Below are positions 18,879 to 43,552 of a DNA stretch of 64,000 nt, piece after piece. The stretch spans positions 434,001 through 498,000 of the forward strand of contig NZ_CP107811.1 in the NCBI RefSeq assembly GCF_036346105.1. Direction: 5' to 3'. The DNA comes from Streptomyces sp. NBC_00539 (GTDB lineage Bacteria > Actinomycetota > Actinomycetes > Streptomycetales > Streptomycetaceae). The notes beneath the pieces were generated by a model. That model was not told the origin of the DNA and did not search any database. It worked only from the letters and a program-made list of their open reading frames with translations. The translations under genes were made by a program, and so were the position numbers. Numbering within the stretch: the stretch's first letter is position 1; each line of letters starts with the position of its first letter.

Positions 18879-18885
18879 CTCATCG

Positions 18886-20529: not shown

Positions 20530-20553
20530 GCACGCTCCCTCGAACCCTTGCAT

Positions 20554-20588: not shown

Positions 20589-20591
20589 GGA

Positions 20592-23493: not shown

Positions 23494-23511
23494 TCGTCCG
23501 GGCGCGCAGCG

Positions 23512-23561: not shown

Positions 23562-25955
23562 TCAGCGCCGCGGTCGCAGGACGAGCCCCGGACCGGTTCG
23601 GGGGGCGGCGCCCTGGAGGTCCACGGGGTAGAGCCCGCCGGCGGAATGGGTGTCCGTCTGGTCCTCGTAGTGGGGGGAAAGGGGGTGTCCGGAACTGCCG
23701 TGCCGGAGGACGTCCCTCAGGTGGGGGCCGGGTCCGGCCAGTTCGGCCACGAAGCGCCAAGGGGCGCCCTCCACGACGGCGCCTTCCCGGTCGGGGGTCA
23801 TCAGACAGACCGAATGCCCGCTTCCGCCCACGGGCGTGGTCCTGCCGCCGAAGAGGCCGGCCAGTGCCGGTACCGCCTTCGCCAGAGGATGCCGGTCCGC
23901 CAGCACGTGGACGTGCTCGTACCGCCAGAGCGCGGGCCGTGTGCCGTGCGCCCGTGAGATCCGGCCGGCTGCCTCGGTCAGCGCGCGGGACACGACGGCC
24001 GCAAGGGGTTCCAGGTCTCCGAGCCGCTCCCTGGCCTCACCGTCCAGCAGGATGTGGTCGACCTGGAGGGAGATGTCCGGCATCTTGCCGGCCAGATCGG
24101 CGCCGAGCCTGCTGGTCACCCAGTGTTCCGCCAGGACCTGCATCAGGCGGAAGAACACCAGGGGTGCCGCCTGGTCGGCCGCGTCACGGCCGTCCCAGTC
24201 CTTGAGCAGTTCGTGGCAGGCCCTGGCGAGCCGGTCCTCGGGAGGCTGCTGGTCCAGCGCTTCCAGCAGGGCCGGCAGGACACGGCGCGCGCGACCGTTG
24301 GCGGTGTCGCCCTGCCATCGAGCGCAGTCGTCGGCGGTCACCGGCCCCGCACCCAGTATCAGTTCCTCGATGCGCTCCGCCCGGTAGGGAGCCACCCAGT
24401 CGATACCTACCTGGACGGGAGCGTCGTCGGGGACGAGCTTGTGGTTGGCCGAGACGATGTACCCCTCCTCCGGGTTGACCGTTTCCGGCAGTTCATCGAA
24501 TTCCAGGAACCGCTCCCAGGACCGGGCGACTTCGCTGTATGCGCCCGGTGCGAGGCCGCTGGCCGGCCTGCGTGCGGGGACCAGTCCCGCGGTCTTGAGA
24601 GCGATGTCGCCGTCGCGGCAGGCCACCATGACGTTGAGCACCGGGACTCCGAAGCCGCGCAGCGCATCGCGGAACTCCTCGTAACCGCGCGCGCGCCACA
24701 TCAGCTGGCAGCCTTCTATCTCCGTGGACGGGGTGAGGCCGCTCCAGAAGAGCCCGTACCTGCCCGCGTCGTCATCCGCGGCCGGCGGGTCCATCTCCAC
24801 GTGCCGGACACCGCCCGCCGCCCTCACGACCACGTCGTCTCCCCCGCGTACGGAGATGGTGCTCTCGATCTCCCAGGTGCGTTCGGCGCCGCTCAGGGAG
24901 TCGAGGGTGCACAGGTCCTGGGTGTCCACCGTGGAATTGGTGATGCCCCAGGCGAGGTGCCGGTTGGCGCCCGCGATCAGGCCCGGGAGGCCCGGGACGG
25001 TCACGCCGTATCCGTCTGCGGCGTCTTCCCCGTCGGCGGTGACCTTCAGCCCCATCTGGTACCACAGGCTGGGCTGGGTGAACAGGATGTGCGGGTCGTT
25101 GGCCAGGAGCGGATGACCGGTGGCGGAGCGTTCCCCCGACACCGCCCAGGCGTTGGACCCGATGGGGTGTTCTCCGCGCAGGAGCCCCTGGAGCCAGTCA
25201 CGGGACCCGAGGGGGAGGGCGTCGACGTGTTCCGAGCGCAGGACCGCCTCGTCGGTGCTCCCCGCACGGTCCGCCGAGCCCGGCCCGGCGGGTTTCCTGA
25301 TGGTCACGGCCCCGCCGTCCGGGTACTTCGGGTGCAGGAAGGACGCGGCGCACGAGGGATGTTCGCGGGTCAGCCGGGCTCTGAACGTCTCGTTCTTGAT
25401 GTTCACCCCGAGGTCGAAGCCCAGGTGTTTGACGATCACGAGGGAATCGACCGGTGTCCAGGGCTCGGGACGGTAACGCAGCAGCATGAACTCCGGCGGA
25501 AGGCCTGCGCGCCGGCGCATCCGTCGTAGGGCGGTGTTCACGCCGCGGCTGAAGGCTTCGAGGGCGGCCCTGCGTTCCGGGCCCAGAAGTTCCTCCGAAG
25601 CCCGCGCCACCCGTTCGAGCGCCAGCTTCCTGGCCCGTACGTCATCGGGCAGTGCCACGGCGCCGAAGATCTCGGACAGCGTCCCCTTGGCCCTCCTGCG
25701 CAGTACGTCCATCTGCCACAGGCGGTCGGTGGCCTGCGCGAAGCCCGCGGCGAAATAGAGGTCCCCGTCGTTGTCCGCCTCGACCCAGGGGATGCCCCGG
25801 TGGTCCCGGCGGATGGTCGCGCCCGACACGATGCCCTCGTGCCGCTGAGTGCCGGGGCGGGGCCGGGCCCATCGGCTCGGTGCCGCGAGGATGCCGAGTG
25901 CCCGGTCGCGCAGGGAGCCGCGGAGGGAGTCGCGGAAGGATTCACGCCTGCTCAT
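23562..25955 (-). CDS. penicillin acylase-family (Ntn) amidohydrolase, last gene of the NRPS operon
   Basis: 797 aa. Ntn-hydrolase precursor of the penicillin/AHL/cephalosporin acylase type: alpha-subunit with IRRDHRGIPWVEADNDGDLYF at 48-68 and AAGFAQATDRLWQMDVLRRR; linker; then the self-cleavage site HPIG|SNAWAVSG with Ser267 as expected new N-terminal nucleophile; AWGITNSTVD for the oxyanion Asn; and SANHKLVP. Family members cleave fatty-acyl or aryl amides (penicillin acylase, AHL acylase, PvdQ). No clear signal peptide is visible, unlike PvdQ, so it may act in the cytoplasm or leave by another route. The start overlaps the exporter gene by 14 nt. Inferred role: deacylation of the lipidated peptide made by the operon, or self-protection by hydrolysis of the product. 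Confidence 0.85.
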   Translation of the reverse strand: MSRRESFRDSLRGSLRDRALGILAAPSRWARPRPGTQRHEGIVSGATIRRDHRGIPWVEADNDGDLYFAAGFAQATDRLWQMDVLRRRAKGTLSEIFGAVALPDDVRARKLALERVARASEELLGPERRAALEAFSRGVNTALRRMRRRAGLPPEFMLLRYRPEPWTPVDSLVIVKHLGFDLGVNIKNETFRARLTREHPSCAASFLHPKYPDGGAVTIRKPAGPGSADRAGSTDEAVLRSEHVDALPLGSRDWLQGLLRGEHPIGSNAWAVSGERSATGHPLLANDPHILFTQPSLWYQMGLKVTADGEDAADGYGVTVPGLPGLIAGANRHLAWGITNSTVDTQDLCTLDSLSGAERTWEIESTISVRGGDDVVVRAAGGVRHVEMDPPAADDDAGRYGLFWSGLTPSTEIEGCQLMWRARGYEEFRDALRGFGVPVLNVMVACRDGDIALKTAGLVPARRPASGLAPGAYSEVARSWERFLEFDELPETVNPEEGYIVSANHKLVPDDAPVQVGIDWVAPYRAERIEELILGAGPVTADDCARWQGDTANGRARRVLPALLEALDQQPPEDRLARACHELLKDWDGRDAADQAAPLVFFRLMQVLAEHWVTSRLGADLAGKMPDISLQVDHILLDGEARERLGDLEPLAAVVSRALTEAAGRISRAHGTRPALWRYEHVHVLADRHPLAKAVPALAGLFGGRTTPVGGSGHSVCLMTPDREGAVVEGAPWRFVAELAGPGPHLRDVLRHGSSGHPLSPHYEDQTDTHSAGGLYPVDLQGAAPRTGPGLVLRPRR

Positions 25956-27216
25956 GGGAGACCGTCTCCTTCCTTGCAGTGTGCTCTTCCCGACGGGTCA
26001 GGCCGGGGATGCGCCGGCCCACCACCAGGTAGATGAGCACGCTGAACAGGGCGAAGCTGCCGAGGACGAAGAACATGGCCGTCCCGCCGTACCAGGCGAG
26101 GATGAGGCCCCCGGCGAACGGGCCGACGAAGCCGCCGAGCTGGGCGATGGTCTGGGCACCGAAGTAGCTGCCGCGCCGGTCCTCGGGAGCGATACGGTCG
26201 ATGATCGCGAACTCGGCGGGAATGATGAAGGTCTCTCCGATGGAGAAGACGACCATCGCCACGATGAACTGCCATGCCTGGCCCGACAGCCCGAACCCCG
26301 CCATGCCGCCGAACATCAGCAGGCCGCCCAGCACGATGGAGCGCACCGGTTCGAGCCTCTGGGAGATGCGCGAGGCCAGCAGCTGGAAGAGCACGACCGT
26401 CACGGCGTTCGTGGTCAGCAGGTAGCTGAGGATCTTGACCCCGTCCTCGAACCCGAGCGAGAGGTGCTGGGCCAGGACCCCGGAGATCTTGCTGTGCACC
26501 GCCTCCAGCAGCAGGCCGGCGATGATGAGGCAGAGCAGCGTCCGGTCCGTCGCGAGGGCCCGGAAACTTCCCCTCAGCCCTTCGAGGACCTGTCCGAAGA
26601 GCTTGCTCTCCTCGGTCGTCCGGCGGGTGGGGCCGGCCGCTCCGGAGGGCCTCAACAGGATCGCGGAGCCCAGCAGGACGAAGTAGCCCACGTACACGGC
26701 GGCCGCGATGAGGAACGTCTCGCGGCCACCGGACAGGCCCGTGAAGGCGCCGATCATCGGGCCGGCCGAGAAGCCGATGTTGACGGCCAGGTACTGGTAC
26801 GAGAACCACTTCACGCGCCGTTCCTGCGGCAGCAGATCGCTCAGCAACGCCTTGGCCACGGGCCCGAACGAACTGCTGCTCAAGGAGAGCGTCGCGTTGA
26901 AGACGAACACGCTCACGAGGCTGTGGCTGAGGTAGAAGCCGATGAAGGACACGACGACACCGAGCAGCGACAACAGGAGCAGCGGTGTGCGTCCGAGGAC
27001 GTCGGAGACGGAGCCCCCGACGAGCCCCGCGAAGATCGCGAAGAACACCGACGAGCCGACGATGAAGCCGATGGTGCCCGGCTCCAGGCCGAGTTCCCGG
27101 CGCAGGAACACCGCGAGGAAGGGAATGCTGATCGAGTTGGCGAGCATCATGATGCCGGAACCGGCGACCAGGAGCCTGGCCAGTGGGGGTGCGGCGGTGG
27201 TGGTGCGCGTCGTCAT
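25942..27216 (-). CDS. MFS transporter (probable exporter of the peptide)
   Basis: 424 aa with about 12 hydrophobic helices and the MFS loop signature between helices 2 and 3 (GGSVSDVLGRTPLLL). A hydrophilic loop near residue 200 separates the two six-helix halves. The ATG at 27216 overlaps the stop of the thioesterase-bearing NRPS gene (ATGA), and its own 3' end overlaps the acylase gene, so it is translated as part of the biosynthetic operon. Inferred role: export of, or resistance to, the nonribosomal product. The extended open frame upstream of 27216 is only the antisense shadow of the NRPS thioesterase region. Confidence 0.88.
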   Translation of the reverse strand: MTTRTTTAAPPLARLLVAGSGIMMLANSISIPFLAVFLRRELGLEPGTIGFIVGSSVFFAIFAGLVGGSVSDVLGRTPLLLLSLLGVVVSFIGFYLSHSLVSVFVFNATLSLSSSSFGPVAKALLSDLLPQERRVKWFSYQYLAVNIGFSAGPMIGAFTGLSGGRETFLIAAAVYVGYFVLLGSAILLRPSGAAGPTRRTTEESKLFGQVLEGLRGSFRALATDRTLLCLIIAGLLLEAVHSKISGVLAQHLSLGFEDGVKILSYLLTTNAVTVVLFQLLASRISQRLEPVRSIVLGGLLMFGGMAGFGLSGQAWQFIVAMVVFSIGETFIIPAEFAIIDRIAPEDRRGSYFGAQTIAQLGGFVGPFAGGLILAWYGGTAMFFVLGSFALFSVLIYLVVGRRIPGLTRREEHTARKETVSHEQA

Positions 27217-30200
27217 CGTGCGGTCCCCTGCCCGGCTTCGCTGAGGCGGGCGTCGTGCCGGTGGAAGAACCGCTGCATGAGCAGGGCGGTGTCGCGGGCG
27301 CCCGGATGGCGCAGCATGCTCTCGTGGCCCGCATCGACGCTCGCGCAGGACAGTCCGCCGGCCGTGATCCGCTCCCAGCCCTCGCGCGGGCTCTCGGCGG
27401 TGCGGCCACTGTCCTGGGCAGCCTCGATCAGGAGGACGGGCGGTACGTCGGACGGTACCGCCGGCCACGTGAGGCAGGACATGCGGACGAACATCTCCAG
27501 GGCTTCGTGGAGCCCCCCGCCCAGCAGTTCGAGGGCGTCCGGGCCGAGGAGCTCCTCCACCTTGTCCAGCAGGGCGTCCTCCGGCATGGTCCACAGCGCG
27601 GCCGGATCGGCCTGCGAGGCGGACGCGCTCAGGCCGGGGAACAGGTCGGCCAGTGTGCCGAGGAACGCCTGGAGGCGTTCGGTGCGTGAGGTGGCGAGTT
27701 GACGCTGGACCGCCGCCGGGGTGAGGGCGTCCAGCACCACCAGGCTCTCCACTCGGACGCCGCGGGAGCGCAGGGCGTCGGCGACGTAGGGGCTCAGGGC
27801 GCCGCCGTAGGAGTGGCCGACGAGGTGGATCCTGCGTCCGGCCGCCGCTTCGTCGATGATGCGGGCGCATTCGCCCGCCAGGGAGTCGATGGACAGGGCG
27901 GCGCCCTGGGCCTGCGCGATGGCCCTCGTCGACAGTGCGTAGAAGGACCGGTCGCCGAAGTGCGCGGACAGCTGGACGTAGGACGCCCCGAGTCCGAGTA
28001 CGCCGGGCAGCGCGAACACCGCCGTCTCGCCCTCGGGGTTCTGCCTCAGGGGGAAGAGGCCGTGTACCGTGCCCGTGCCCGTGCCCGTGTCGCCGGCCGC
28101 GCCGCGCGGTGCGGCGGTCAGGGTGGAGACCGGGGCGTCCGGGTCGTCCAGGACGGTTCGCAGCAGCCGGCCGAAGTCCCCGGCCATCTCCCGGACGGTG
28201 CCGCTGTGGAAGAGGTCCGTGTTGTAGCGCCAGCGCAGGGTGAGGCCGCCTCCGGCTTCGAGCACGTCGAGGACCAGGTCGGTCTGTACGTCCTGCTCCG
28301 GTGAGTGGACCAGGGTGACCTCCAGTCCTTCCAGGTCCAGCCGGGCGGCTTCGTTGTTCTGGTAGGCGAACATGATCTGGAAGAGGGGCGAGTGCGCGGC
28401 GCTGTGCTCGGGCTTGAGCCGCTTGACCAGGTGGTCGAAGGGCACGTGCTGGTGCTCCAAGTCGTGCAGGGTCCGTTCCCTGACCTGCCCGAGCAGCTCG
28501 CGGAAGGTGAGATCACCGTCCACGTGGGTGCGCAGCACGACCGAATTCACGAACATGCCGATCACCCCCTCCAGCTCGGCGTGCCGCCGGTTCGCCACGG
28601 GGCTCCCCACCACGATGTCGCGGTCGCCCGAGCGGCGGGCCAGGAGCACGGCGAACAGGGCCTGCAGCAGCGTGAAAGGAGTGGCGTTCTCGCCGTGGCC
28701 CAGCGCCCGCAGTTCCTCGGTGAGCGGCGTCGCCAGTGACTCCTCGTGGATGCCGCCCGCGTAGGTCATGTTGCGGGGGCGCGGCTTGTCGAGCGGCAGC
28801 CCGTGCACGACGGGCAGTCCTTCGAGCCGCTTCTGCCAGTAGTCGATGTCCTGCTCGGCGGCGCCGCTGTCGGCCCAGCGGTCCATGCTGTAGGCGTAGT
28901 CGCCGTATTCGACGCTCAGCGGGGCGAGCGGGAGGTCCGTCGCGGCCGCGTCCTGCTTGAAGTGCGCGTAGAAGTCCACCAGTTCACGGCTGAGCACGGA
29001 GTTGGACCAACCGTCCGAGGCCACGTGGTGGGCGGTGATCAGGAGGGCGTGCAGTCCCTCGGAGATCCGGACCAGGCGGACCCTGAGCGGGTCGTCCTGC
29101 TCCAGGTCGAAGGGGCGTGCCAGTTCCTGCGCCGACAGCCGCCGTACCGCGCTCATCGGGTCCTCGCCGGGGTCCGTCCCGAGGGCTTCCGTCCGCAGGG
29201 TGAACCGGCCGGGCGTCCGTACGACCTGAACCAGCTGTGTGCCTTCCAGCCGCAGGACCGTGCGCAGCGGTGCGTGGCGGTCCACGATGGCCCCGAAGGC
29301 CCTGCCCAGCGCTGCGGCGTCCAGGTCCCCGCGCATCAGGACGGTCTGGTGCAGGTTGTAGGCGGCGCTCTCGGGTTCGAGGGCCGCGAGGAAGTAGAGC
29401 CGCCTCTGGGGATCGGTGGCCGGCGGGTGGGCGCCCGCCGGCGCCTTGACCAGCGCCACTCCGCCTGCACCGTGCTGTCCCTCGGAGGTCGCGTTGCGAA
29501 CGGCCTCGGCCAGGGCGGCGGCGGTCGGTTCCCGGAGGAAGTCGCGCAACGGCACGTCGACGCCGAACTCGCGCCGGACCCGCGCCAGCAGCGTGATCGC
29601 GACGAGCGAGTGACCGCCGAGCTGGAAGAAACCGGTCGTCGGGTTGGCCCGCTCCAGGTTCAGGAGCTCGGCGATCATCCCTGCGATCCGCACCGCCGTG
29701 GTGTCGGAGGCGGACTCCTGCGGCTCCGCCTCCTGCGCCTCGCCCAGGACGGTGGCCCGGTCGGGGTCCGGGAGGGCGCGGCGGTCGAGCTTGCCGTTCT
29801 GGGTCATGGGCAGCGAGTCGAGCGGGATGAACACGCTGGGGAGCATGTACGGGGGCAGCGCTGCCGAGAGCTGCTCCCGCAGCGACACCGCGGTCACGCC
29901 GGGCGCGCGGGGGACCACGTAGGCGATCAGGCTCGTGCCCAGCCCGGGGAGGTCCCGCGTGGTGACGGCGGCCTCGCCGAGCGAGTCGAGCGCGCGCAGG
30001 GCGCCCTCCACCTCGCCCGGCTCCACCCGGTACCCGCGGATCTTGACTTGGTCGTCCTTGCGGCCGAGGTAGGCGTAGTCGCCCGCCCCGGCCGACTGGA
30101 CGAGGTCACCCGTGCGGTACCCGCGCCCGGCTCCGCCGGGCAGCTCCACGAACCGTTCCCGGTTCAGCTCCGGACTCGCCAGGTAGCCCTGGGTGACGCC

Positions 30201-31346: not shown

Positions 31347-31385
31347 GGTTGGTTTCCTTCTTGGACCAGCGGATTCGCTGCCATG

Positions 31386-34300: not shown

Positions 34301-37300
34301 AGATGATGTACGCGTCGTCCCTGCCGCCCGGCAGCCGGCCCCGGTACGGTGCGCTGCCCTCGGCGGAGGCCAGCAGGGGCCCCAGTTCCGCCACGCGCAC
34401 CGAACCGCCGGTGGCCTCTTCGGCCGCGGTCCGCGTCTGCCCGTCGCACAGGACGAGGTCCGCGCCGCTGGTCCGCAGCATGGCGGCGACGCGTTGTACG
34501 GGTCCCGCGGGGAGGGGCAGGTAGATCGCGCCGGTCCGCATGACGGCCAGCGTCGCCACGAGGTAGTCGATGTTCCGCTCGGCGACCACGCCGACGACCG
34601 TCCCGGGTCCCGCACCGAGCTCGTGCAGCACGGTCGCGGCGGAGCCGGCCCGCTCGGCGAGCCGCTCGTAGGTGATGGTCTCGGTTCCGCACAGGGCCGC
34701 GATGCGGTCGGCGTGGGTGGCGGCCCTCTCCTCGAACACCGGGAAGAAGCCGTCCGCGCGGAGCGCCTCGGCCGGCTCGCCGTACCCGTCGAGCAGCCGG
34801 TGCCACCGCTCCTCGCCGAGCAGGGTGCGCTGGCTCGGCACCGAGCGGGGGTCGGCGGCCAGGTCGTCGAGTGCGTTGCGGTAGACCTCGCCGACGAGGC
34901 GCAGCTGGTCCTCGGTCATCCGCCGCATGTTGGCTTCGAGGTCGAGGGACAGCAGTTTGGTGAAGGGGTCCTTGTTGAACTCCGTGCGCAGCGTGAAGTG
35001 CGTCTGGATGTAGGCCTTGGCGTCGAGCACTTCGAGCGCGGTGGCCGAGGCGAGCTGCTCGTAGCTGTGGAAGTGGGTGTAGTTGAAGCTGATGTCGGTG
35101 AGTTCCCGCACGTCGATGAGCCGCTGCAGACGCGCGTAGGGGAACCGGCGGACGGGAAGGAGCTGCTGCTCCTTGGCGAAGGCTGCGGCGATCAGGTCGT
35201 TCCAGGCGCCCTGCCGGCTGTTGAGCTTGTACGGCACGACGTTCAGGTGGACCCCCATCACGTCGGCGCCGCCCTCCTCTTCGGAGCGGCCGTTGGACTC
35301 GACGCCGAGCACGACCTCGCTGCTGCCGGTGAGGCAGGACAGCACCCTGGCGTGCACGGCGAGCAGCACGTGCTTGAGCGACACGTTGTGCTCGCGGGCG
35401 ATGTCGTCCAGCGCGTGCGACAGTTGGGGGTCGATGTCGACGCTGAGGAAGCCCATCGTCCCCTCGTGCCGGTCTTCGGGCCCCTCCACGAGGCGCGGAA
35501 GCATCGTCGGAGTGGTGTCTTCGAGTTCTTGTCGCCAGAAGTCCTCGATGGCGGGGTCGGCAAGTGCTCCCTGCTCCAGGGCGATGTAGTCGGCGTAGCG
35601 CCGGACGGGACGGGCGGCCGCTTCCTTCTGCGCTCCGTCGCGCAGGGCCCAGTAGTCGGCCAGGATCTCGGTGATCAGGGACGACTCGCTCCAGCCGTCG
35701 AGCAGTGCGTCGTGGAAGCTCATGGAGAACATGAACTCGTCGTCGGCGAGCTCGTGGACCGTGAACCGCATGAGCGGCGGATTCGTCCAGTCGTAACCGA
35801 CCCCGCGCTCCGCCAGCTGCCACGAGTCGAGTGCGGCCTCCTGCTCCGAGGGGGACAGGTGGCGCAGGTCCTCGGCCGTGACGTGGGTGGCGGCGTGGGC
35901 GTGGACCAGCTGGAGGGGCTCCGAGTAGCCGTTGAAGTCGAACGACGTGCGCAGGATCTCGTGCCGGTCCACGGCCCGTGCCACTGCGCGCTCCATGGCC
36001 TGGTGGTCGTAGGCGGCCTTGAGCCGGAACATGAAGATGTCGCAGTACATGTTGACGTCGGCTTCGTAGGCGCTGTGGAACAGCAGGCCCGCCTGGAGGG
36101 TGCCCACGGGGTAGGCGTCGACGACGTCCCCGTCGGGGATCAGGCCGCGGTCCTCGTCGCTGATCAGGCTGAACGGTGCCACGCTCGGCGACGCGGTCTC
36201 CGGGGCCTGTTCGCGCACCGCCACCTCGGCGAGGGCGAGCGGGGTCTGCAGGGCGTAGATGTCGCGCAGCTCCAGGGTGATGCCCTTCCCCAGGGCTTGG
36301 GCGCGCAGCTGCAGCGCCATGATCGAGTCACCGCCGATGCTGAAGAACGAGTCGGTCTCCGTCACGCCGGTGATGCCGATGACGTCCTCGAAGATCTCCA
36401 CGATGGCCCGGGCGTCCTCGGAACCCCCCGCGGGTGCTCCCGATGCCTCACCGGCGGGCTCGCGCAGGCAGTTCGCGGCCGAGGCGGCCGGCAGCTCCTT
36501 GCGGTCGACCTTGCCGTTGTGGTTCATGGGGATGCTGTCCACGGGCACGACGAAGGCCGGGATCATGTAGTGCGGAAGCCGCTCGCGCAAGCGGGAGAAG
36601 AGCTCGGCCGGGTCGAAGCCCTCGCCGCGCACGACGTAGGCCACGATCCGCGGTCCGGACTCCGCCGAGCGGTGGTCGCCGCGCGATCCCCCGCGAATGA
36701 GGTCGCGGACGTCGGTGATCCTGGCCGAGACCGAGCGTTCCTTGACGACGGGGTTCGAGGGGGCTTCGGGTGTGGTGACGACCACGGCGGCCTGGGTGAT
36801 ACCGGTGACCGCGCTCAGCACCGCCTGGATCTCGCCGAGTTCGATCCGGAAGCCGCGGATCTTGACCTGGTCGTCCGCGCGGCCCTGGTACTCGTACTCG
36901 CCCGTCCCGGTGATCCTCGCCAGGTCTCCGGAGCGGTATCCCAACCCGCTGTGGCCGGGGAGTTCGACGAAGCGCTCGCGGGTGAGATCGGGGCGCCCCA
37001 GGTAGCCGAGGGTCACTCCGGGACCGGTGACCACGATCTCGCCCACCTCGCCGGCGGGCACCTCCCGCAGCTCGTCGTCGACGAGCACGAAGCCGAGGTC
37101 GGGCAGGGGCAGGCCGATCAGGGATCCGGCCTGGGACAGGTCCTGCTCCAGCACCCGGCGGAAGGAGGCGTGCACCGTCGTCTCGGTGATGCCGTACATG
37201 TTGATGAGCTGCGGGGTGTCGTCCCCGTACTTGGCGACCCAGCGCCGCAGGTTGCCGAAGTGCAGTGCCTCGCCGCCGAAGACCACCCAACGAAGCGGCA

Positions 37301-38108
37301 GCCGGGCCGCGTGCGCGGCGTCCTCGACGGTCAGCTGGTTGAACGCCGTGGGGGTCTGGCTGAGCATGGTCACGCGTTCCCGCTGGAGCAGTTCCCAGAA
37401 GGTACGCGGGTCCTTCGCCACTTCCTGTTCCACGACGACCACGCAGCCGCCGTACAGCAACGCGCCCCACATCTCCCAGACCGAGAAGTCGAAGGCGAAG
37501 GAGTGGAACAGCGACCAGACGTCCTCGCAGCCGAACCCGAAGAGTGCCTCCGTACCCGAGAAGAGCCGCAGCACGTTGCCGTGGGACACCTGCACGCCCT
37601 TGGGGCGGCCGGTCGTACCCGAGGTGAAGATGATGTACGCGCGGCTGTCGGCTGCGATGCCGGGGTGCGGCAGTTCCTGCGCCGGGACGGGCAGCTCGTC
37701 ATCGACGCACACCACCTGGAGTCCGGCGGCGAGCGAGCCGGCCAGCTCCCGCGTGGTGACCACCACGGAGGGGTCGGCGTCGTCGAGGATCAGTTCGAGC
37801 CGCGCCGTGGGCGTCGCCGGGTCCATGGGCACGTACGAAGATCCGGTGCGCAGCGCCGCGAGGGCCGCCGCGATCATGTCCACCGAGCGCTCCAGCAGGA
37901 TGCCCACGGGGCGACTCGGGTCGTCCGAGGCCCTGATCAGTGCGGCCGCCAGGGCGTTCACCCGGTCGTCGAGTTCCCGGTACGTCACGGCCCGGGCGCC
38001 GCAGCGGACGGCGTCGCGCGTGGGGAAGGCACGCACCGAGTTCGCGAAGCCCTCCACCAGGTTTCCCACGCCCGCCAGGGTTCCGGTCGGAAAATCGTGT
38101 TCCTGCAT
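31386..38108 (-). CDS. NRPS, A-PCP-C-A-PCP-C (two modules)
   Basis: 2240 aa. A1 about 20-545; PCP1 with GGDSI (Ser595); C2 about 665-1090; A2 about 1120-1640; PCP2 GGHSL (Ser1688); C3 about 1745-2190 with HHVVSDG (His1883-1884); then about 50 aa that may dock to the next protein. A1 pocket residues read D-F-W-S-V-G-M-V-H-K, two changes from the threonine code DFWNIGMVHK, so Thr or a beta-hydroxy analogue. A2 reads D-I-W-E-V-S-M-D-D-K; acidic residues at 278, 330 and 331 argue for a basic substrate such as diaminobutyrate. C2 looks DCL-like (YPVGTLQAGLLFHS) but has H799-D800 in place of the HH pair. A1 is a close copy of the A domain in the next NRPS. GGAG is 8 nt before the start. Confidence 0.93.
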   Translation of the reverse strand: MQEHDFPTGTLAGVGNLVEGFANSVRAFPTRDAVRCGARAVTYRELDDRVNALAAALIRASDDPSRPVGILLERSVDMIAAALAALRTGSSYVPMDPATPTARLELILDDADPSVVVTTRELAGSLAAGLQVVCVDDELPVPAQELPHPGIAADSRAYIIFTSGTTGRPKGVQVSHGNVLRLFSGTEALFGFGCEDVWSLFHSFAFDFSVWEMWGALLYGGCVVVVEQEVAKDPRTFWELLQRERVTMLSQTPTAFNQLTVEDAAHAARLPLRWVVFGGEALHFGNLRRWVAKYGDDTPQLINMYGITETTVHASFRRVLEQDLSQAGSLIGLPLPDLGFVLVDDELREVPAGEVGEIVVTGPGVTLGYLGRPDLTRERFVELPGHSGLGYRSGDLARITGTGEYEYQGRADDQVKIRGFRIELGEIQAVLSAVTGITQAAVVVTTPEAPSNPVVKERSVSARITDVRDLIRGGSRGDHRSAESGPRIVAYVVRGEGFDPAELFSRLRERLPHYMIPAFVVPVDSIPMNHNGKVDRKELPAASAANCLREPAGEASGAPAGGSEDARAIVEIFEDVIGITGVTETDSFFSIGGDSIMALQLRAQALGKGITLELRDIYALQTPLALAEVAVREQAPETASPSVAPFSLISDEDRGLIPDGDVVDAYPVGTLQAGLLFHSAYEADVNMYCDIFMFRLKAAYDHQAMERAVARAVDRHEILRTSFDFNGYSEPLQLVHAHAATHVTAEDLRHLSPSEQEAALDSWQLAERGVGYDWTNPPLMRFTVHELADDEFMFSMSFHDALLDGWSESSLITEILADYWALRDGAQKEAAARPVRRYADYIALEQGALADPAIEDFWRQELEDTTPTMLPRLVEGPEDRHEGTMGFLSVDIDPQLSHALDDIAREHNVSLKHVLLAVHARVLSCLTGSSEVVLGVESNGRSEEEGGADVMGVHLNVVPYKLNSRQGAWNDLIAAAFAKEQQLLPVRRFPYARLQRLIDVRELTDISFNYTHFHSYEQLASATALEVLDAKAYIQTHFTLRTEFNKDPFTKLLSLDLEANMRRMTEDQLRLVGEVYRNALDDLAADPRSVPSQRTLLGEERWHRLLDGYGEPAEALRADGFFPVFEERAATHADRIAALCGTETITYERLAERAGSAATVLHELGAGPGTVVGVVAERNIDYLVATLAVMRTGAIYLPLPAGPVQRVAAMLRTSGADLVLCDGQTRTAAEEATGGSVRVAELGPLLASAEGSAPYRGRLPGGRDDAYIIFTSGSTGEPKGALLRHDGMLNHIQAKLDALEIRPGDRVSQDAAATFDISVWQMLAPLAAGATAVIYPDAVSQDPSRLLRAVAEDGITVLEVSPTVLSVFAAELAHYGNDAFGAFALRWVVSSGETLTPKCANAFRAQLPDVRLLNMWGATEVSDDCTHYEVVAVADERAASVQVGRPIRNAKVYVLDDNREPVPVGTPGELYVGGLCVGGGYVNNPERTAAAFVPDPFGESPEVLAYRTGDRGRQLADGGFEFLGRIDTQLKIRGHRIELGEVERALATVETLQESAVTVRADGEHGKQLVGFYVPKAVQNSAAAAGDTLLRLEVSPVELRDRLGSLLPRYAVPDYLIALGELPRTPHGKVDTKALAAWDLTDLDTTVQDDSLPPTPTEAAVIEVWAGVLRTARPPAALSNFFALGGHSLHAAQVMARLRDRFGVDLPLRLLFENPTPRALAHQVEELVGSPAAGATPPSRITPLERRPREFPLARNQASLWFLNQVDPQDRSYENTTLLHLRGDLDVEALRSAVDTLAGRHEILSMRFGNREGVPYQTPRAGAAVRLEVVDASHEEAADAEAMKEYVRRQTGALRFDLERGPLVVARLYRFTPTQHVLQWSSHHVVSDGWSTDVAIREITEAYLAHREGRIPRLPELPVQYGDYALWQQEQPSGAGSAEAAFWRTYLDGYQGELALVTDQERTEDRSRTSGHQVKDWEPRMTRRVGELARARGVTPFMVFHAATAAVLSRFAQQSDLVIGSAVAGRGLPETANLIGYFADTLPFRYHVEPQTTGARLLDSVASSALSALEHQQMPFQEIVREAGGERTPGVSPLVQVLVTVDNFPLDLDALPGISAALEQVPPATALFDLLFRFVEDPSGLHLTVQYDATLFTPATVERLVDAVDRVLEALLEQPDTELGDIVLTGAEDLAALQAAWQAVSREEVDFAHQAARAVESPQWPDFLARVEAEGLLSALLLAL

Positions 38109-38135
38109 CGTTCCAACTCCAGATCTTCTGCTTCT

Positions 38136-41100
38136 TCAGCGGGAATGGGCGTTGAGCTCGCGCAGAGCGGTCCGGAACCCCTCGGCGACGGCTTCGGCCA
38201 CGGACGCGTCGACCACGTTCTTCTGGTGGACCAGCCGGAACACCAGCCGGTCGTCGTGCCGGGTGCCGTAGAGGCTCAGGGCGAAGGCCACGTCACGGGG
38301 CCGCACGTCGACCGCCCGGACCTCCACGTCGCCGAGCATCTGGCGGCAGCCGCTCGACGGGAGGGAGAAGCCCTCCGCCAGGCGCGTGTCGGCGGTCTGC
38401 TGGAACGTCAGCGTCGCCTGGAAGAGCGGGTTCTGTCCGTGCCGTTCCGGCTTCAGCTCCTTGACGAGCCGGGCGAAGGGCAGGTCGGCGAAGTCCAGTG
38501 CGTCCCGCAGCTCCTGCCAGGTGCGGTCCTCAAGGCTGTCGAGGCCCTCGCCGTCCCGGAAGTCCCCTTGCAGGGGCATCATGTTGACCAGGTAGCCCAC
38601 GGTTTCCGCGAACCGCCAGTCGGTCCTGCCGTGGTGGGGGCTTCCGATGACGATCTGCTTCTCGCCGACGGTCAGGTACAGGGCGTGCAGGTAGGCGGAG
38701 GCGAGCGTGACGAACGGCGTACGTCCGTGGGCCTGGCTGCGGGTGTAGATCCGGCGGGTCGTCTCCGCGTCGATCTCGAAGTCCACGGTGCCGGCCGGAT
38801 TGCGGTCGGCCGGGGCGGCCGCCCTCGGCTTGAACAGCAGCTGGTTGCGCAGGGGCCGCCACCGGTCGGCCCAGGTCTGCAGCCGCTCGTCGGCGGCGGC
38901 GTCCGGTGCACGACGGGCGCGGGCCCATTCCAAGGCCGTCGCCGGTGACCCGCCGGTGGGCGCGGGGGACTTCTCCAGCCGGATTCCGGGCAGCTCCTGG
39001 AGGATTTCGGTGAGGACCGTACGCAGCGACCAGTGGTCGACGACGGCGTGGTGGCAGACGAGCATGAGCACCGTCGCGTCCGAGGTGAGTGCGGCGGCGG
39101 CACGGACGAGCGGCCCCTCGGTCAGCGAGAAGGGCCGGTGGGCCACCTCGTCGAGGTAGGCGTCGACGGCCGGGTCATCGTCGTCCGCGAACCGCTGTTC
39201 CTGCCAGTCGACGTCGCGGCTGTCACGCACCAGCTGGGTACCCGTCCCCAGGGGGCCGAGGACGGTGCGCAGGGCCGGGTGGCGTTCGACGGCCCCGGCC
39301 ACGGCGGACCGCAGGAGGTGCGGCTCGTAGGCCCTCGACAACCGCACCGCGATGGGCAGGTTGTTGGCGGTGTCCTCGGGGAGCAGCTCGGAGTAGAACT
39401 GCATCTGGATCTGGCCATCGGCCGCAGGGCCCTCGGCCGGCGACCGGTCCGGCGCCGGCTCCTGCGCCTCGGCGCGGGCCGGCGGTTCGGCGGTCAAGGC
39501 CGTGATGGCCTGCGCCACCTCGTCGAGCGAGCGGTCGCCGTAGAAGAGCCGGCTGTCGATACTCCGCTGGAAGAGCTGCTCCAGGGCGGCCTTGAACGCG
39601 GTGAGCTTCAGGGAGTCCAGGCCCAGTGAGGCGAGCGGCTGTGCGAGGTCTTCCCCGCTCGGCGCGCCTCCCCAGCGCCCGGCCAACTGGGCCACGAGTG
39701 CGTCCCGCACGGCCTCGTGGCGCCGGACGTCGTCCAGCAGGTGCAGCGAGGAGGTGTCGGACGCAGGTACGTCGGCCGCCTGCCCGTGTTCGTCCCCCCG
39801 TGTCGCGCTCACCACCCGCAGGCCGCCGGCGAGGTACCGCGTCCGCGTCTCGGCCCTGCGGATCTTTCCGCTGGAGGTCTTGGGGATCGAGCCGGGGTAG
39901 ACGAAGACGACCTCGGCCAGGTGGAGGTCGCACTCGGTGCCGACCGTACGGAGCACCTCCCTGCTGACGGCGGCGAGGGTGTCCGGGTCGTCGCGAAGGA
40001 GCGTCACGGAGGAGCGTTTCACCTCGGCCACCAGCACGACCTCAGGTGCGTCCGGGGCCGGCTGGAACGCCGCGGCGCACCCCTTGCGCAGGTGGGCGGA
40101 GGCGAGCGATCCCACGGTTTCGATGTCGTGCGGGTAGAAGTTGCGACCGGCCACGATGAGCAGGTCCTTCATGCGTCCTACGGGGTACAGCTCGCCCTCG
40201 TGGAAGGCTCCGAGGTCACCGGTGCGGAGGAAGAGGCCGGGGTGTCCCTCGATCCGCGCGCGGAACGTTTCCTCCGTGGGGCCTTCGGCGCCCCAGTAGC
40301 CCTGGGCCACTCCCCTGCTGCGCACGCAGATCTCGCCGACGCAGCCGTCCTGTACGGCGCGCCCGTTCGCGTCGCGGATCACGATCTCGGTGTGCAGGGC
40401 GGGGCGCCCCGCCGACACGATGCCGACTCCGTCCTCCGCCTGCGACCCCAGAGCCGGGGCGAGCCGGCCCTGCTCCACCGTACGGCGGTCGAAGACGTGG
40501 GCACGGTACCCGGCCGTCGGCTCGGCGCCCGAGACGAACAGGGTGGCTTCCGCCAGGCCGTAGCAGGGGTAGACGGCGCCGGGGTCGAAGCCGTGTGCGC
40601 CGTAGACGGTGGAGAAGTCCCGCAGGGTCCTTTCCACCACGGGTTCGGCGCCGTTGAACGCGATGCGCCAGCCGCTGAGGTCGACTCCGGCGAGGCGGTC
40701 GGCGTCGTACCGGTCGACCAGGAGCTGGTACGCGAAGTTGGGGCCGCCGGAGCAGGTGGCGCCGAACCGGGCGATCGCCAGCGGCCAGATCATCGGATCG
40801 TAGACGAAGGCGAAGGTGTTGAGGAGGACCGACCTCAGCCCCATGTAGAGCGGCAGGAGCGCCGCCCCGATCAGACCCATGTCGTGGTAGAGCGGAAGCC
40901 AGCTGAGGATCACGTCGCCGGACCGGACGCCGAAGCCGTCGGCGATGGCCTCCTCGTTCTCCGCCAGGTTGCGGTGGCTGACCATCACCCCCTTCGGAGC
41001 GCCGGTGGAACCGGAGGTGTACTGCAGGAAGGCCAGTTCCTCACCGTCGGTGCCCACGGGCCGGTACGTTGCCCGGTCGGTGGCCGCCAGGGTCTCGATG

Positions 41101-41546
41101 AGGTGGGTCCGCAGGTCCTCCGAGCCCTCCGGCTTCGGCAGGTCGGCGAGGTGTTCGGCGAGTGCCGCGGTGGTCAGGGCGTGGGTGGGACGGCAGCTCT
41201 GGATGACGGCCTCGATGCGGTCGAGCTTCGCGCCGGGGCGCGGCAGGTAGAGCGGAACCGCCACGACCCCCGCGTACAGGCAGCCGAGGAAGGCGACCAG
41301 GTAGTCGAGACCCGGTGGGAAGAGCAGCAGGATCCGGTCTCCGCGTCGCGCGGTGGACTGCAGGGCCGCGGCTATCCTCAGGGACGAGTCCTCCAGCTCC
41401 CGGAAGGTGACGTGCTGCTCGACCTCCAGGCCGGTTCCCACGAAGGTGTAGGCCACGTCATCGGGGCGCTCCCCGGCCCAGTGGGAGAGTGCCGCGGGGA
41501 TCGACGGGAACCTCGGTTCGGTGTGGACTCCGGTGCTTGCCCGCAT
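38136..41546 (-). CDS. lipoinitiation protein: fatty acyl-AMP ligase - ACP - condensation domain
   Basis: 1136 aa. Residues about 15-585 are an acyl-adenylate ligase of the FAAL group (LQYTSGSTGAPKGVMVSH; LPLYHDMGLIG; PCYGLAEATLFVSG; A10 Lys561). It activates a fatty acid as acyl-AMP and hands it to the fused ACP (about 610-680; LGLDSLKL, Ser645). The C domain (about 715-1136) then joins the acyl group to the first amino acid on the next NRPS; its motif reads HHAVVDH (832-838), with His replacing the usual final Gly. This gives an N-acylated peptide. Its start is one base from the stop of the threonine aldolase gene (TGA-C-ATG) and its stop 27 nt before the next NRPS, so the genes are tightly coupled. 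Acyl chain length cannot be predicted. Confidence 0.92.
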   Translation of the reverse strand: MRASTGVHTEPRFPSIPAALSHWAGERPDDVAYTFVGTGLEVEQHVTFRELEDSSLRIAAALQSTARRGDRILLLFPPGLDYLVAFLGCLYAGVVAVPLYLPRPGAKLDRIEAVIQSCRPTHALTTAALAEHLADLPKPEGSEDLRTHLIETLAATDRATYRPVGTDGEELAFLQYTSGSTGAPKGVMVSHRNLAENEEAIADGFGVRSGDVILSWLPLYHDMGLIGAALLPLYMGLRSVLLNTFAFVYDPMIWPLAIARFGATCSGGPNFAYQLLVDRYDADRLAGVDLSGWRIAFNGAEPVVERTLRDFSTVYGAHGFDPGAVYPCYGLAEATLFVSGAEPTAGYRAHVFDRRTVEQGRLAPALGSQAEDGVGIVSAGRPALHTEIVIRDANGRAVQDGCVGEICVRSRGVAQGYWGAEGPTEETFRARIEGHPGLFLRTGDLGAFHEGELYPVGRMKDLLIVAGRNFYPHDIETVGSLASAHLRKGCAAAFQPAPDAPEVVLVAEVKRSSVTLLRDDPDTLAAVSREVLRTVGTECDLHLAEVVFVYPGSIPKTSSGKIRRAETRTRYLAGGLRVVSATRGDEHGQAADVPASDTSSLHLLDDVRRHEAVRDALVAQLAGRWGGAPSGEDLAQPLASLGLDSLKLTAFKAALEQLFQRSIDSRLFYGDRSLDEVAQAITALTAEPPARAEAQEPAPDRSPAEGPAADGQIQMQFYSELLPEDTANNLPIAVRLSRAYEPHLLRSAVAGAVERHPALRTVLGPLGTGTQLVRDSRDVDWQEQRFADDDDPAVDAYLDEVAHRPFSLTEGPLVRAAAALTSDATVLMLVCHHAVVDHWSLRTVLTEILQELPGIRLEKSPAPTGGSPATALEWARARRAPDAAADERLQTWADRWRPLRNQLLFKPRAAAPADRNPAGTVDFEIDAETTRRIYTRSQAHGRTPFVTLASAYLHALYLTVGEKQIVIGSPHHGRTDWRFAETVGYLVNMMPLQGDFRDGEGLDSLEDRTWQELRDALDFADLPFARLVKELKPERHGQNPLFQATLTFQQTADTRLAEGFSLPSSGCRQMLGDVEVRAVDVRPRDVAFALSLYGTRHDDRLVFRLVHQKNVVDASVAEAVAEGFRTALRELNAHSR

Positions 41547-41547
41547 G

Positions 41548-42618
41548 TCAGACCTCCGTGGTGTGGCCGGCGAGGGGGCGCGCGCCGTTCTTCATGACGC
41601 GCCCGATGATGGAAACCGCTTCGTTGACGTCGCTGTCGTCCAGTCCGCGGTGCAGCACCGCGCGGAGCCGCCCGTGACCCAGCTCGGCGATGGCCAGGCC
41701 CTCCTCGCGGGCGGCCGCGGCGACGGTCTGCCAGGTGTGCCGCTCGTCCGTGACACGGAACATCACGATGTTCGTCCGCACGTCCTGGGGGACCACCTCG
41801 ATGCCGTCCAGTTCCGCCAGGCCCTCGGCGAGCAGGGCGGCTCGACGGTGGTCCTCGGCGAGCGCGGCCGCGTTCTCGATGGCGAGGATCCCGGCTGCGG
41901 CGACCGTTCCGACCTGCCGCATTCCGCCGCCGAGCATCTTGCGCAGGCGGCGTACCTTGCCGATGAACCGGGCGCTCCCCACGACCATGGAGCCGATGGG
42001 GGCGGAGAGTCCCTTGGAGAGACAGAACTGGACGGAGTCCGCGAACTGCGCGATCTCGGCCACCGGAACCCCCGCACCTACGGCGGCGTTGAATATCCGG
42101 GCGCCGTCCATGTGTACGGGGACCCCGCGCTCGGCGGCGAAACGGCGTACGTCGCGCAAGTAGTCCAGGGGGAGGATCGCGCCGCCGCAGCGGTTGTGCG
42201 TGTTCTCCAGGCAGATCAGTGCGGGGAGGGCGAACTGGGGGTCCTCCGGGTCGTCCGGAAACGCGGCCTCCAGGTCGCGCAGGAGCAGGCGGCCGTCAGG
42301 CTGGGTGGGGACCGGCTCGTAGACGATCCCGCCGCACACGGAGGCGCCGCCGGCCTCGTAGATGTAGATGTCGCTCTCGTCTCCGACCAGCACCTTGGAG
42401 CCCCGGGGCGCGTGCGCCATGAGGCTTGCCAGGTTCGCCATGGTGCCGCTCGGCATGAAGCAGGCGGCTTCCTTGCCGAGTGTGGCGGCGGCGAGCGCTT
42501 CGAGCCGGTTGGCCGTGGGGTCCTCGCCGTAGACGTCGTCACCGAGGGCGGCTTCGCTCATGGCGCGGATCATGTCCGGAGTGGGCAGCGTGAAGGTGTC
42601 GCTGCGTAGCTCGATCAC
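41548..42618 (-). CDS. low-specificity threonine aldolase-family enzyme, first gene of the NRPS operon
   Basis: 356 aa from GTG at 42618 (AAAGG 8 nt upstream). Fold-type I PLP enzyme: IELRSDTFTLPTPDMIRAM start, GDDVYGEDPTANRLE, SGTMANLASLMAH cofactor-phosphate loop, HMDGARIFNAAVG (Asp to the pyridine nitrogen) and SKGLSAPIG with the Schiff-base Lys. Family members interconvert L-threonine (or other beta-hydroxy amino acids) with glycine plus an aldehyde. As the first gene of the operon, coupled by one base to the FAAL gene and upstream of a threonine-type A domain, it probably makes a beta-hydroxy amino acid building block or adjusts the threonine/glycine supply. The open frame beyond 42618 runs through repeats and has no family similarity. 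Confidence 0.9.
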   Translation of the reverse strand: MIELRSDTFTLPTPDMIRAMSEAALGDDVYGEDPTANRLEALAAATLGKEAACFMPSGTMANLASLMAHAPRGSKVLVGDESDIYIYEAGGASVCGGIVYEPVPTQPDGRLLLRDLEAAFPDDPEDPQFALPALICLENTHNRCGGAILPLDYLRDVRRFAAERGVPVHMDGARIFNAAVGAGVPVAEIAQFADSVQFCLSKGLSAPIGSMVVGSARFIGKVRRLRKMLGGGMRQVGTVAAAGILAIENAAALAEDHRRAALLAEGLAELDGIEVVPQDVRTNIVMFRVTDERHTWQTVAAAAREEGLAIAELGHGRLRAVLHRGLDDSDVNEAVSIIGRVMKNGARPLAGHTTEV

Positions 42619-43552
42619 TGATGGGGCCTTTCGGGAACTCGGGAACCGCGCCGGGGACGGCGTCGATCTGGTGGGGGCTCGGTGCGCGCTTTCGTGACCT
42701 GTGCGTGTGGGTGTGCCTGTGCTCGTGCGTGTGCCGGTGCCCGGGCGTGTGCCGGTGCCCGGGCGTGGGCCGGTGCCCGGGCGTGGGACTCGTGGGGCGA
42801 TGACGAAGGGCGGTCGGTCGGTCGGTCGGGCGGCGCTGCCGTACGGCTCGTCCGGACCCGCGGCCCGTAACACCGTGCACACGCGGGACTTCGGGATTGC
42901 CGTGCGTGGGCTCCGTCCACACGGACGCCCGCCCCTCGTACCCGGCCCGGCAGGGGGGACGCCGGGGTATCGCGCACTGCCGGGGCGGGCGGCCTGGGCG
43001 GCGCCTCCCTGCGGGCGCAGGCGGCGGTCCGGGAGGCTGGTGCCGTGGGCCGCCGGACGTGGGCTCGTCACCGGCCGGCCGGGAGTCGATCCCGGTGCTC
43101 CCGGAGCCGGAACCGGTCAGCCGTAGTTCGGTCTGTGTACGGCCGAGCCGCAAGCCGACGGCCTCGGCCGTTCGGCGGGCCGCACTCTCGCAGGCAGTCT
43201 CCTCACGCCACGAGGGCTCCGCATGGAAGACGGGCGAGCCGATGAGGACAGCGGGCGTGCGCGCGCGTAGCGGGGCCGGGACCCGAGGGCCTCTTGGCCG
43301 GGCAGCCGGCCAGGGCCCTGTTCGACCCGCCCTCCGACCCCTGTACGCGCGACCTGTCGATCAGTCATCTTCCGTCTCCCCCCACAGGTGTCGCCAGGCC
43401 GTGGCGGGGTCGGTCTCGCGGTCCAGGCAGTGGAACGTCCCCTTGGCCCGACCGGGGCCGGCCGACTGAGTCCACGTGGTCCCTCTCCCCCTCGTTTCGG
43501 CAGGTGCGCATCGGGCCGACCCACGGTGAGGCCGGCGCTCCCTCTCACGAAG
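42619..43552 (-). other. long 5' leader / intergenic region of the NRPS operon, no convincing gene
   Basis: This 0.93-kb stretch lies between a consensus-like minus-strand promoter and the first gene of the operon. Several open frames exist on both strands, but all are Arg/Pro/Gly-rich, switch frames, and lack a good ribosome site or known domain. Visible structure: an 18-bp tandem repeat (42713-42784), a (GGTC)n-like run near 42811-42828, and short coding-like scraps in different frames near 43380-43470 and 43110-43260 that could be remnants of a decayed gene. It may hold a regulatory leader, a small peptide gene or a second promoter near the repeats. Confidence 0.5.
42713..42784. repeat. 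18-bp tandem repeat (about 4 copies)
   Basis: GTGCCGGTGCCCGGGCGT occurs at 42731-42748 and 42749-42766, with a one-base variant at 42767-42784 and a more degenerate copy at 42713-42730. It lies 95-166 bp upstream of the threonine aldolase start, inside the NRPS leader. In-frame codons are not disturbed because no gene is assigned here; copy-number variation between strains would be expected. Confidence 0.75.

What the first reader, a model, noticed from the sequence alone, without database searches (positions are those of the whole stretch)
23562..42618. Compact lipopeptide operon that ends in an acylase: a possible lipidated-precursor ('prodrug') pathway
Six genes run leftward with overlaps or tiny gaps: threonine aldolase, FAAL-ACP-C, A-PCP-C-A-PCP-C, A-PCP-C-TE, MFS exporter, penicillin-acylase-family enzyme. 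The first NRPS protein attaches a fatty acid; the last gene encodes a class known to remove acyl groups (PvdQ in pyoverdine; peptidases in prodrug systems). The pair suggests the product is built as an acyl-peptide and deacylated during or after export, or that the acylase gives self-resistance. I know of no described cluster with this gene order.
Basis: partly seen in the sequence, partly recalled or inferred. Interest (0 to 1): 0.82.

Follow-up and report, generated by a model that had tools for sequence, protein, structure and literature searches.

The report
Lipid-capped dehydropeptide operon with in-house acylase
A rare six-gene Streptomyces operon appears to build a three-residue peptide under a temporary fatty-acid cap, probably turning the first residue into a reactive dehydro amino acid, and carries its own enzyme that could cut the cap off, apparently inside the cell; the product is unknown.

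Summary
Six minus-strand genes (42618 to 23562) encode a GntG/L-allo-threonine-type aldolase, FAAL-ACP-C, A-PCP-C-A-PCP-C, A-PCP-C-TE, an MFS exporter and a penicillin-amidase-family acylase, with gaps of -14 to +39 bases. All six are conserved in Streptomyces cirratus, the only orthologous cluster found, with dN/dS of 0.13-0.25.

The reading changes in three ways. (1) FAAL plus acylase is not new: telomycin has an in-cluster acylase (Tem25), and at least 4 of 149 other genomes of the genus have a FAAL gene and an acylase within 12 kb. (2) This acylase has no hydrophobic N-terminus; three of those four do. Deacylation in the cytosol, before export, is the better prediction. Its donor carrier is GGDSI and the A domain before it has a Thr code, so residue 1 is probably acyl-dehydrobutyrine. 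Its second active-site His is Asp, so amide formation, conjugate addition and impairment are all open.

Best model: the lipid protects an N-terminal enamide, and the acylase unmasks it to a 2-oxobutanoyl or diaminobutyryl peptide. No chemistry was tested. New variant of a known kind.

The parts
41548..42618 (-). PLP-dependent aldolase, GntG / L-allo-threonine aldolase type; GTG start
   Evidence: NF041359 448.3 bits, cut-off 230; closest solved chains are L-allo-threonine aldolases, best E 1.2e-94; 93% identical in S. cirratus
39807..41516 (-). N1: fatty acyl-AMP ligase domain
   Evidence: AMP-binding; NCBIfam fatty-acid--AMP ligase models, below curated cut-offs
39477..39716 (-). N1: acyl carrier protein, LGLDSL
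38136..39416 (-). N1: first condensation domain, HHAVVDH (joins acyl chain to residue 1, inferred)
   Evidence: same motif in S. cirratus
36474..38078 (-). N2: A1, ten-residue code DFWSVGMVHK read by eye from motif anchors, Thr type
   Evidence: sequence; the code appears among Thr/Dhb-activating domains in PMC12283262 (passage)
36204..36428 (-). N2: PCP1 with GGDSI motif (donor type for epimerising, D-type or dehydrating C domains)
   Evidence: motif meaning from PMC10880069 (passages)
34821..36143 (-). N2: CmodAA-type (dehydrating) condensation domain; active site HDALLDG, second His replaced by Asp800
   Evidence: best solved relatives McyA 8jbr 314.6 bits and AmbE 7r9x 173 bits; KHVLLAVH and RR in C6; motif column
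33204..34748 (-). N2: A2, code DIWEVSMDDK read by eye (acidic pocket; cationic residue inferred)
   Evidence: sequence; the code was found in no paper
32919..33143 (-). N2: PCP2, GGHSL
31539..32864 (-). N2: second condensation domain, HHVVSDG
29757..31256 (-). N3: A3, code DVWSVAQVYK read by eye, substrate unknown; 76% DNA identity to A1
29487..29696 (-). N3: PCP3, GGHSL
28092..29426 (-). N3: terminal C domain with intact HHVASDG and no module after it; nearest solved relatives Txo2/Txo1
27213..28031 (-). N3: thioesterase; Ser1179 in GHSYGG, with Asp1206 and His1341 as the likely partners (by eye)
   Evidence: no solved relative by sequence
25942..27216 (-). MFS exporter; best-scoring curated model YdeE (120.3 bits, cut-off 582)
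   Evidence: ATG overlaps N3 stop
23562..25955 (-). Penicillin-amidase-family acylase, nucleophile Ser267 (IGSNAW), no signal peptide seen
   Evidence: PF01804 557.9 bits; Ser267 invariant in the 21 rows of alignment A1; N-terminus

Best explanation
The operon makes a small peptide under a temporary lipid cap. Steps supported by sequence: a fatty acid is activated by the FAAL and passed to the ACP; the first C domain joins it to a Thr-type residue on PCP1; a CmodAA-type C domain follows; two more residues are added; a TE releases the chain; an MFS pump and an acylase are encoded in the same operon. Inferred steps: the aldolase supplies or edits the beta-hydroxy amino acid (perhaps L-allo-Thr); the CmodAA domain dehydrates residue 1 to acyl-dehydrobutyrine; the acyl group holds this residue as a stable enamide; the acylase removes it in the cytosol after release; the freed N-terminal enamine hydrolyses to a 2-oxobutanoyl peptide (or, if the Asp-for-His domain does conjugate addition, a 2,3-diaminobutyryl product is freed); the pump exports it. 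The cap is thus mainly a protecting group rather than a prodrug mask removed outside.
For: Domain order and conserved synteny. CmodAA class: best solved matches McyA and AmbE. PCP1 is GGDSI while PCP2 and PCP3 are GGHSL, as PMC10880069 describes for donor carriers of dehydrating domains (passages). A1 has a Thr-family code. Of 29 relatives of this C domain from the genus, the upstream A domain was readable in 22: 15 Thr type, 6 Ser type, 1 other; the carrier motif was readable in 23: 20 GGDS, 3 GGNS, 0 GGHS. Free N-terminal dehydro amino acids hydrolyse to keto acids (PMC10880069, passage of section 5). No hydrophobic acylase N-terminus, unlike three of four other FAAL-linked acylases. Aldolase closest to L-allo-Thr aldolases; L-allo-Thr is the postulated source of E-Dhb.
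Against: No chemistry, expression or product data. The second His of the CmodAA domain is Asp in both species; changing that His to Ala in AmbE costs most or all of the product (PMC10880069), so this domain could be impaired or do something else. None of the 15 other Thr-type relatives lacks this His. The review also says AlbB-C3 makes E-Dhb from plain L-Thr, so the aldolase is not needed for that step. The acylase's true substrate is unknown; its best solved relatives are D-succinylase and glutaryl-7-ACA acylase. Lack of a signal peptide is from a hydropathy scan, not a dedicated predictor. A2 and A3 substrates and the role of the terminal C domain are unresolved.
Confidence: 0.42

Rival explanations
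1. One reading: an acyl-peptide prodrug is exported and deacylated outside the cell or during export, as with PvdQ acting on acylated ferribactin.
For: Acyl start, exporter and acylase in one operon. PvdQ acts in the periplasm (PMC6206403, passages). Three of four other FAAL-linked acylases of the genus carry an N-terminal hydrophobic segment.
Against: The window and S. cirratus acylases have none, also when 14 upstream codons are counted.
Confidence: 0.15
2. Self-protection or turnover: the product is the acyl-peptide itself and the acylase destroys stray product inside the cell, as proposed for GdnD and Tem25.
For: PMC10587159 (passages) reports deacylation as probable detoxification for glidonins and compares it with Tem25. 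A cytosolic acylase fits intracellular detoxification.
Against: The acylase is the last gene of one tightly packed operon, which would set it against the product from the start. No activity data.
Confidence: 0.18
3. The CmodAA domain, with Asp for the second His, dehydrates Thr and then adds the amine of residue 2 to the beta carbon (conjugate addition), giving a branched 2,3-diaminobutyrate unit; the acylase later frees its alpha amine.
For: CmodAA domains without the second His include the bleomycin-type conjugate-addition domains, and the authors link its absence to altered function (PMC11342130, section 8 read whole). Second-His loss falls in two separate clades of the tree.
Against: The bleomycin-type domains lack both His; here the first is kept. 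The carboxyl of residue 1 would be stranded on PCP1, and no enzyme for its release is in the operon. The degenerate or stand-alone relatives G018 and G336 have Glu, so the change may be drift.
Confidence: 0.18
4. Ordinary lipotripeptide cluster: the C domain merely condenses, residue 1 stays Thr, and the acylase is a bystander or acts on another substrate.
For: The His-to-Asp change may have removed special chemistry; genomes of the genus hold 1 to 7 acylase matches each, so an acylase as such is not special.
Against: Thr code, GGDSI carrier and CmodAA class agree with one another; the acylase is conserved in place.
Confidence: 0.15

Closest known systems
Telomycin cluster with in-cluster acylase Tem25 (seen through passages of PMC10587159; telomycin FAAL listed as a hypothesis in a table passage of PMC11837247)
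   Same: Lipid-initiated NRPS product with an acylase gene inside the cluster
   Different: Telomycin is a large cyclic peptide (recalled).
Pyoverdine / PvdQ
   Same: Acyl start; an Ntn hydrolase removes the acyl group
   Different: PvdQ is periplasmic; the window acylase shows no signal and fails the PvdQ equivalog cut-off
Legonmycin and corallorazine (acyl-Thr or acyl-Ser dehydrated by a CmodAA domain at residue 1)
   Same: Acyl cap on a residue that a CmodAA domain dehydrates; donor carrier GGDSx in legonmycin
   Different: No acylase step is described in the passages read; the term FAAL does not occur in the corallorazine text
Albopeptide, AmbE (AMB)
   Same: Characterised dehydrating CmodAA domains
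   Different: No fatty-acid cap and no acylase in the passages read; AMB's mask is an alanine
Glidonin / GdnD
   Same: PvdQ-like acylase strips the lipid from an NRPS lipopeptide
   Different: gdnD lies about 1 Mb from the cluster and is predicted periplasmic
Colibactin and naphthyridinomycin prodrug systems
   Same: In colibactin an N-acyl-D-Asn mask prevents formation of a reactive imine until it is cut off; naphthyridinomycin starts with a FAAL-loaded C14 acid (table passage)
   Different: The mask is cut by a periplasmic peptidase in colibactin; a membrane protease, NapG, acts in naphthyridinomycin (that it removes the acyl part is recalled). No Ntn acylase

Membership tests
Penicillin amidase / Ntn hydrolase family (PF01804) | Full-length family match | tested here: met
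   557.9 bits, residues 46-781, profile 2-669 of 675
Penicillin amidase / Ntn hydrolase family (PF01804) | Nucleophile Ser at the start of the beta chain | tested here: met
   Ser267 in IGSNAW; beta chains of solved relatives start at query residue 267; invariant in the 21 rows of A1, which left out G062
Penicillin amidase / Ntn hydrolase family (PF01804) | Self-cleavage into two chains | not testable with these tools
   Needs the expressed protein
PvdQ | Score above the NCBIfam equivalog cut-off | tested here: not met
   73.8 bits, best stretch 266-352, against a cut-off of 950
PvdQ | Export signal for periplasmic action | tested here: not met
   Best 15-residue hydropathy 0.43; hydropathy only
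CmodAA (dehydrating) C domain | Closest to characterised or founding members of the clade | tested here: met
   McyA 1.1e-92 and AmbE 9.9e-50 rank first and second of 38 solved sequences. That chain 8jbr is the dehydrating McyA domain is recalled
CmodAA (dehydrating) C domain | [K/R]SVLLAAH-type helix and Arg at C6 | tested here: met
   KHVLLAVH and VRRFP; motif from PMC11342130
CmodAA (dehydrating) C domain | HHxxxDG active site with both His | tested here: not met
   HDALLDG in both species. PMC11342130 reports that both His are not strictly conserved in the clade, so this does not exclude membership
CmodAA (dehydrating) C domain | Upstream Ser/Thr module with GGDSx carrier | tested here: met
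   Thr code and GGDSI; 21 of 22 readable of 29 relatives are Ser/Thr
CmodAA (dehydrating) C domain | Dehydration activity | not testable with these tools
   Biochemistry needed
FAAL | FAAL-model match in front of an ACP | tested here: inconclusive
   FAAL models rank next after one generic NRPS model but stay under their curated cut-offs; ACP follows
GntG / L-allo-threonine aldolase | Match above curated cut-off | tested here: met
   NF041359 448.3 bits, cut-off 230
Prodrug system with extracellular activation | Secreted or membrane-bound activating enzyme | tested here: not met
   No hydrophobic N-terminus in the acylase of either species; hydropathy only

The most novel reading that the evidence does not exclude
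A lipid as leader: the fatty acyl cap keeps an N-terminal dehydrobutyrine stable during nonribosomal assembly, and a dedicated cytosolic acylase removes it to expose an electrophilic 2-oxobutanoyl (or a 2,3-diaminobutyryl) peptide. This would parallel leader-peptide removal in some lanthipeptides (recalled), with the acyl group in place of the leader and an Ntn acylase in place of the protease.
Probability: 0.27. Interest if true: 0.8.

Novelty: new variant of a known kind. Interest (0 to 1): 0.55.

Why it matters
Why some nonribosomal peptides are made with a fatty acid that is later cut off is still open: PMC6206403 asks it outright for ferribactin (passage), and PMC10587159 says the natural function of GdnD and Tem25 is unresolved (passage). 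Here the cap sits next to a residue that should be chemically unstable without it, which gives a testable reason. The operon has only six genes, so it could be moved whole to a laboratory Streptomyces host. It would also test what a CmodAA domain with Asp for the catalytic His does.

Tried and rejected
PvdQ membership: rejected on the NCBIfam cut-off and lack of signal. FAAL-linked acylases as one clade: not supported. The tree needs 2 changes, though that is fewer than in any of 500 shuffles (mean 5.8), so they are clustered, and long branches and near-copies make the number of recruitments unsure. Wider spread of the cluster: the genome-contig scan, which needs exact short patterns, gave one ortholog, S. 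cirratus (the other hit, Nocardia, is a 37% NRPS). No ortholog in 149 other genomes of the genus by acylase or N1 (listings cut, best rows seen), in 295 other relatives by N3 DNA (best 69% over part of the A domain), in 392 others of the genus by the CmodAA domain (best 50%), or in 393 others of the class by CmodAA domain and acylase at E 1e-80; these draws overlap. A-domain codes: of six codes searched, only the A1 code was found in a paper. Product through S. cirratus: the listing gave nothing usable. Rfam in 17-48 kb: no match at gathering score. Thioesterase against solved sequences: no match. An automatic reading of A-domain code positions 278, 299 and 301 was unreliable, so codes are read by eye with position anchors after GrsA that I recalled.
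Full report
What is there. The window lies in a 7.5 Mb genome (G000, contig 1, 434001-498000). Six minus-strand genes run from 42618 to 23562 with gaps of 1, 27, 39, -4 and -14 bases. The acylase nucleophile Ser267, the TE Ser-Asp-His (by eye), the carrier serines and the HHxxxD motifs of three of the four C domains are in place; the first C domain reads HHAVVDH rather than HHxxxDG.

Conservation. A scan of one genome per species (genome contigs, exact short patterns from the C-TE part of N3) found one orthologous cluster, in Streptomyces cirratus JCM 4738 (89% identity). It holds all six genes in the same order. dN/dS is 0.235 for the acylase, 0.129 for MFS, 0.247 for N3, 0.239 for N2, 0.232 for N1 and 0.139 for the aldolase. 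In S. cirratus the acylase end abuts the segment that lies at 6.8-17.4 kb in the window; apart from a 66-base match, the stretch 17.4-23.5 kb of the window is missing at that place. On the other side homology is continuous to about 42.7 kb, patchy between, and continuous again from 44.3 kb. This fixes the unit as the six genes. No ortholog was seen in 149 other genomes of the genus with the acylase or N1 as query, in 295 other relatives with N3 DNA, in 392 others of the genus with the CmodAA domain, or in 393 others of the class with CmodAA domain or acylase at E 1e-80. The draws overlap.

How special is FAAL plus acylase? From the rows listed (both lists were cut, so this is a lower bound), an acylase hit and an N1/FAAL hit lie within 12 kb in 4 of 149 other genomes: G021, G041, G062, G124. 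In G124 and G021 the acylase directly follows the FAAL gene; in G041 it follows further NRPS genes; in G062 an opposite-strand frame lies between. I did not run a formal test of this count against chance. A tree of 44 acylases does not unite the FAAL-linked ones: 2 changes are needed, which is fewer than in any of 500 shuffles (mean 5.8), so they are clustered but not one group. The window pair stands with G062 on very long branches, G124 with G021, and G041 among the widespread type. How often acylases were recruited cannot be settled from this. In print, the in-cluster acylase Tem25 of telomycin and the out-of-cluster GdnD are precedents (PMC10587159, passages). The pairing is therefore a known kind; the compact three-module layout was found only here and in S. 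cirratus.

Where does deacylation take place? The window and S. cirratus acylases start with an arginine-rich stretch without a hydrophobic core: best 15-residue mean 0.43 and 0.58, 14 upstream codons included. The acylases of G041, G124 and G021 have 2.75, 3.11 and 2.97; G062 has 0.85. Two of the unlinked acylases looked at (L073, L075) also lack such a segment, so cytosolic members are not unique to this operon. This is a hydropathy scan, not a dedicated predictor. The closest solved relatives are D-succinylase and glutaryl-7-ACA acylase; PvdQ matches only locally.

The missed domain. The C domain between PCP1 and A2 matches McyA (314.6 bits) and AmbE (173 bits) ahead of the other 36 solved sequences listed. 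PMC10880069 places AmbE-C2 in the dehydrating CmodAA clade and names C domains of the microcystin and bleomycin clusters as its first, uncharacterised members (passages); that chain 8jbr is that McyA domain is recalled. The window domain has KHVLLAVH and RR at C6, matching motifs described for the clade (PMC11342130, section 8). PCP1 is GGDSI and PCP2 and PCP3 are GGHSL; the review ties GGDSx to donor carriers of dehydrating domains. The PCP1-to-C spacing is 69 residues against 62-63 for the two other pairs, by roughly placed anchors, in the direction PMC10212144 reports for modAA domains (passage). A1 reads DFWSVGMVHK, a Thr-family code. As a check I read the modules in front of 29 relatives of this C domain (the loci returned besides the window). 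The A domain was readable in 22 of 29: 15 Thr type, 6 Ser type, 1 other. The carrier was readable in 23 of 29: 20 GGDS, 3 GGNS, none GGHS. So by class and context residue 1 is probably a substrate for dehydration.

The oddity. The active site reads HDALLDG in both species: the second His is Asp. In 31 aligned rows it is not His in 10: the window pair (Asp), two degenerate or stand-alone relatives (Glu), and six Ser-type domains (Asp or Asn). All 15 other Thr-type relatives keep both His. The tree puts the losses in two separate clades, with long-branch warnings. PMC11342130 links loss of this His to conjugate addition in bleomycin-type domains, which however lack both His. In AmbE the change of this His to Ala costs most or all product. 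Whether this domain forms an amide, does conjugate addition, or is impaired cannot be told from sequence.

Why cap and uncap? [quoted passage not shown] An acyl group makes such a residue a stable enamide. Removing it would expose a 2-oxobutanoyl end. The aldolase could supply the monomer: it is nearest to L-allo-threonine aldolases, and L-allo-Thr is the postulated source of E-Dhb, although AlbB-C3 is reported to use L-Thr. This gives one reason for four otherwise loosely tied parts: aldolase, FAAL, CmodAA and acylase. Every chemical step is inference.

Open points. A2 (DIWEVSMDDK) has an acidic pocket and may take a cationic residue; A3 (DVWSVAQVYK) is unassigned; A1 and A3 are 76% identical in DNA against 93% between species, a duplication older than the split from S. 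cirratus. The terminal C domain of N3 is of ordinary type, intact, and has no module after it; it may use a free amine or be a remnant. MbtH genes exist elsewhere in the genome (4 matches).

Literature limits. Ten paper searches were made; six bear on novelty. I saw passages of PMC10587159, PMC11837247, PMC12283262, PMC10880069, PMC11342130 (and its section 8 whole), PMC10212144, PMC9854587 and PMC6206403; all other papers only as search listings. None of what I saw describes removal of an acyl cap from an N-terminal dehydro residue by an acylase. The telomycin paper itself was not read.

Noticed in passing
L134 11047-13485 (G018) and L136 8478-9950 (G336): Closest relatives (50%) of the window's CmodAA domain besides S. 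cirratus are an A-C protein with a degenerate A domain and no carrier found, and a stand-alone C domain (HEALLDS) beside a wax-ester-synthase-like gene: perhaps decayed or repurposed leftovers of a related cluster.
   Followed up: partly
window 17400-23500: Stretch with candidate sigma factor, MarR/AraC-type regulators and a hydrolase is absent at this place in S. cirratus but for a 66-base match, so the acylase end abuts the next flank there.
   Followed up: partly
L111, L115, L120, L122, L125, L128: The six Ser-preceded CmodAA domains among the relatives read lack the second active-site His (Asp or Asn), while the 15 Thr-preceded ones keep it.
   Followed up: partly
window 36474-38078 and 29757-31256: A1 and A3 are 76% identical in DNA but differ in code: a duplication within the operon with shifted specificity.
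   Followed up: partly
window 42711-42785: 18-base tandem repeat, 4.2 copies, about 90 bases upstream of the aldolase start.
   Followed up: no
window 7327-13518: 2063-residue protein with CBM96 and RHS repeat, next to a pyruvate phosphate dikinase-type gene.
   Followed up: no
window 58785-60743 and 62264-63361: Asparagine synthase-type gene and a terpene synthase; no link to the operon seen.
   Followed up: no
L063 1181-4954 (G041): FAAL-linked acylase whose open frame carries about 400 extra N-terminal residues with a hydrophobic segment; start site not resolved.
   Followed up: no
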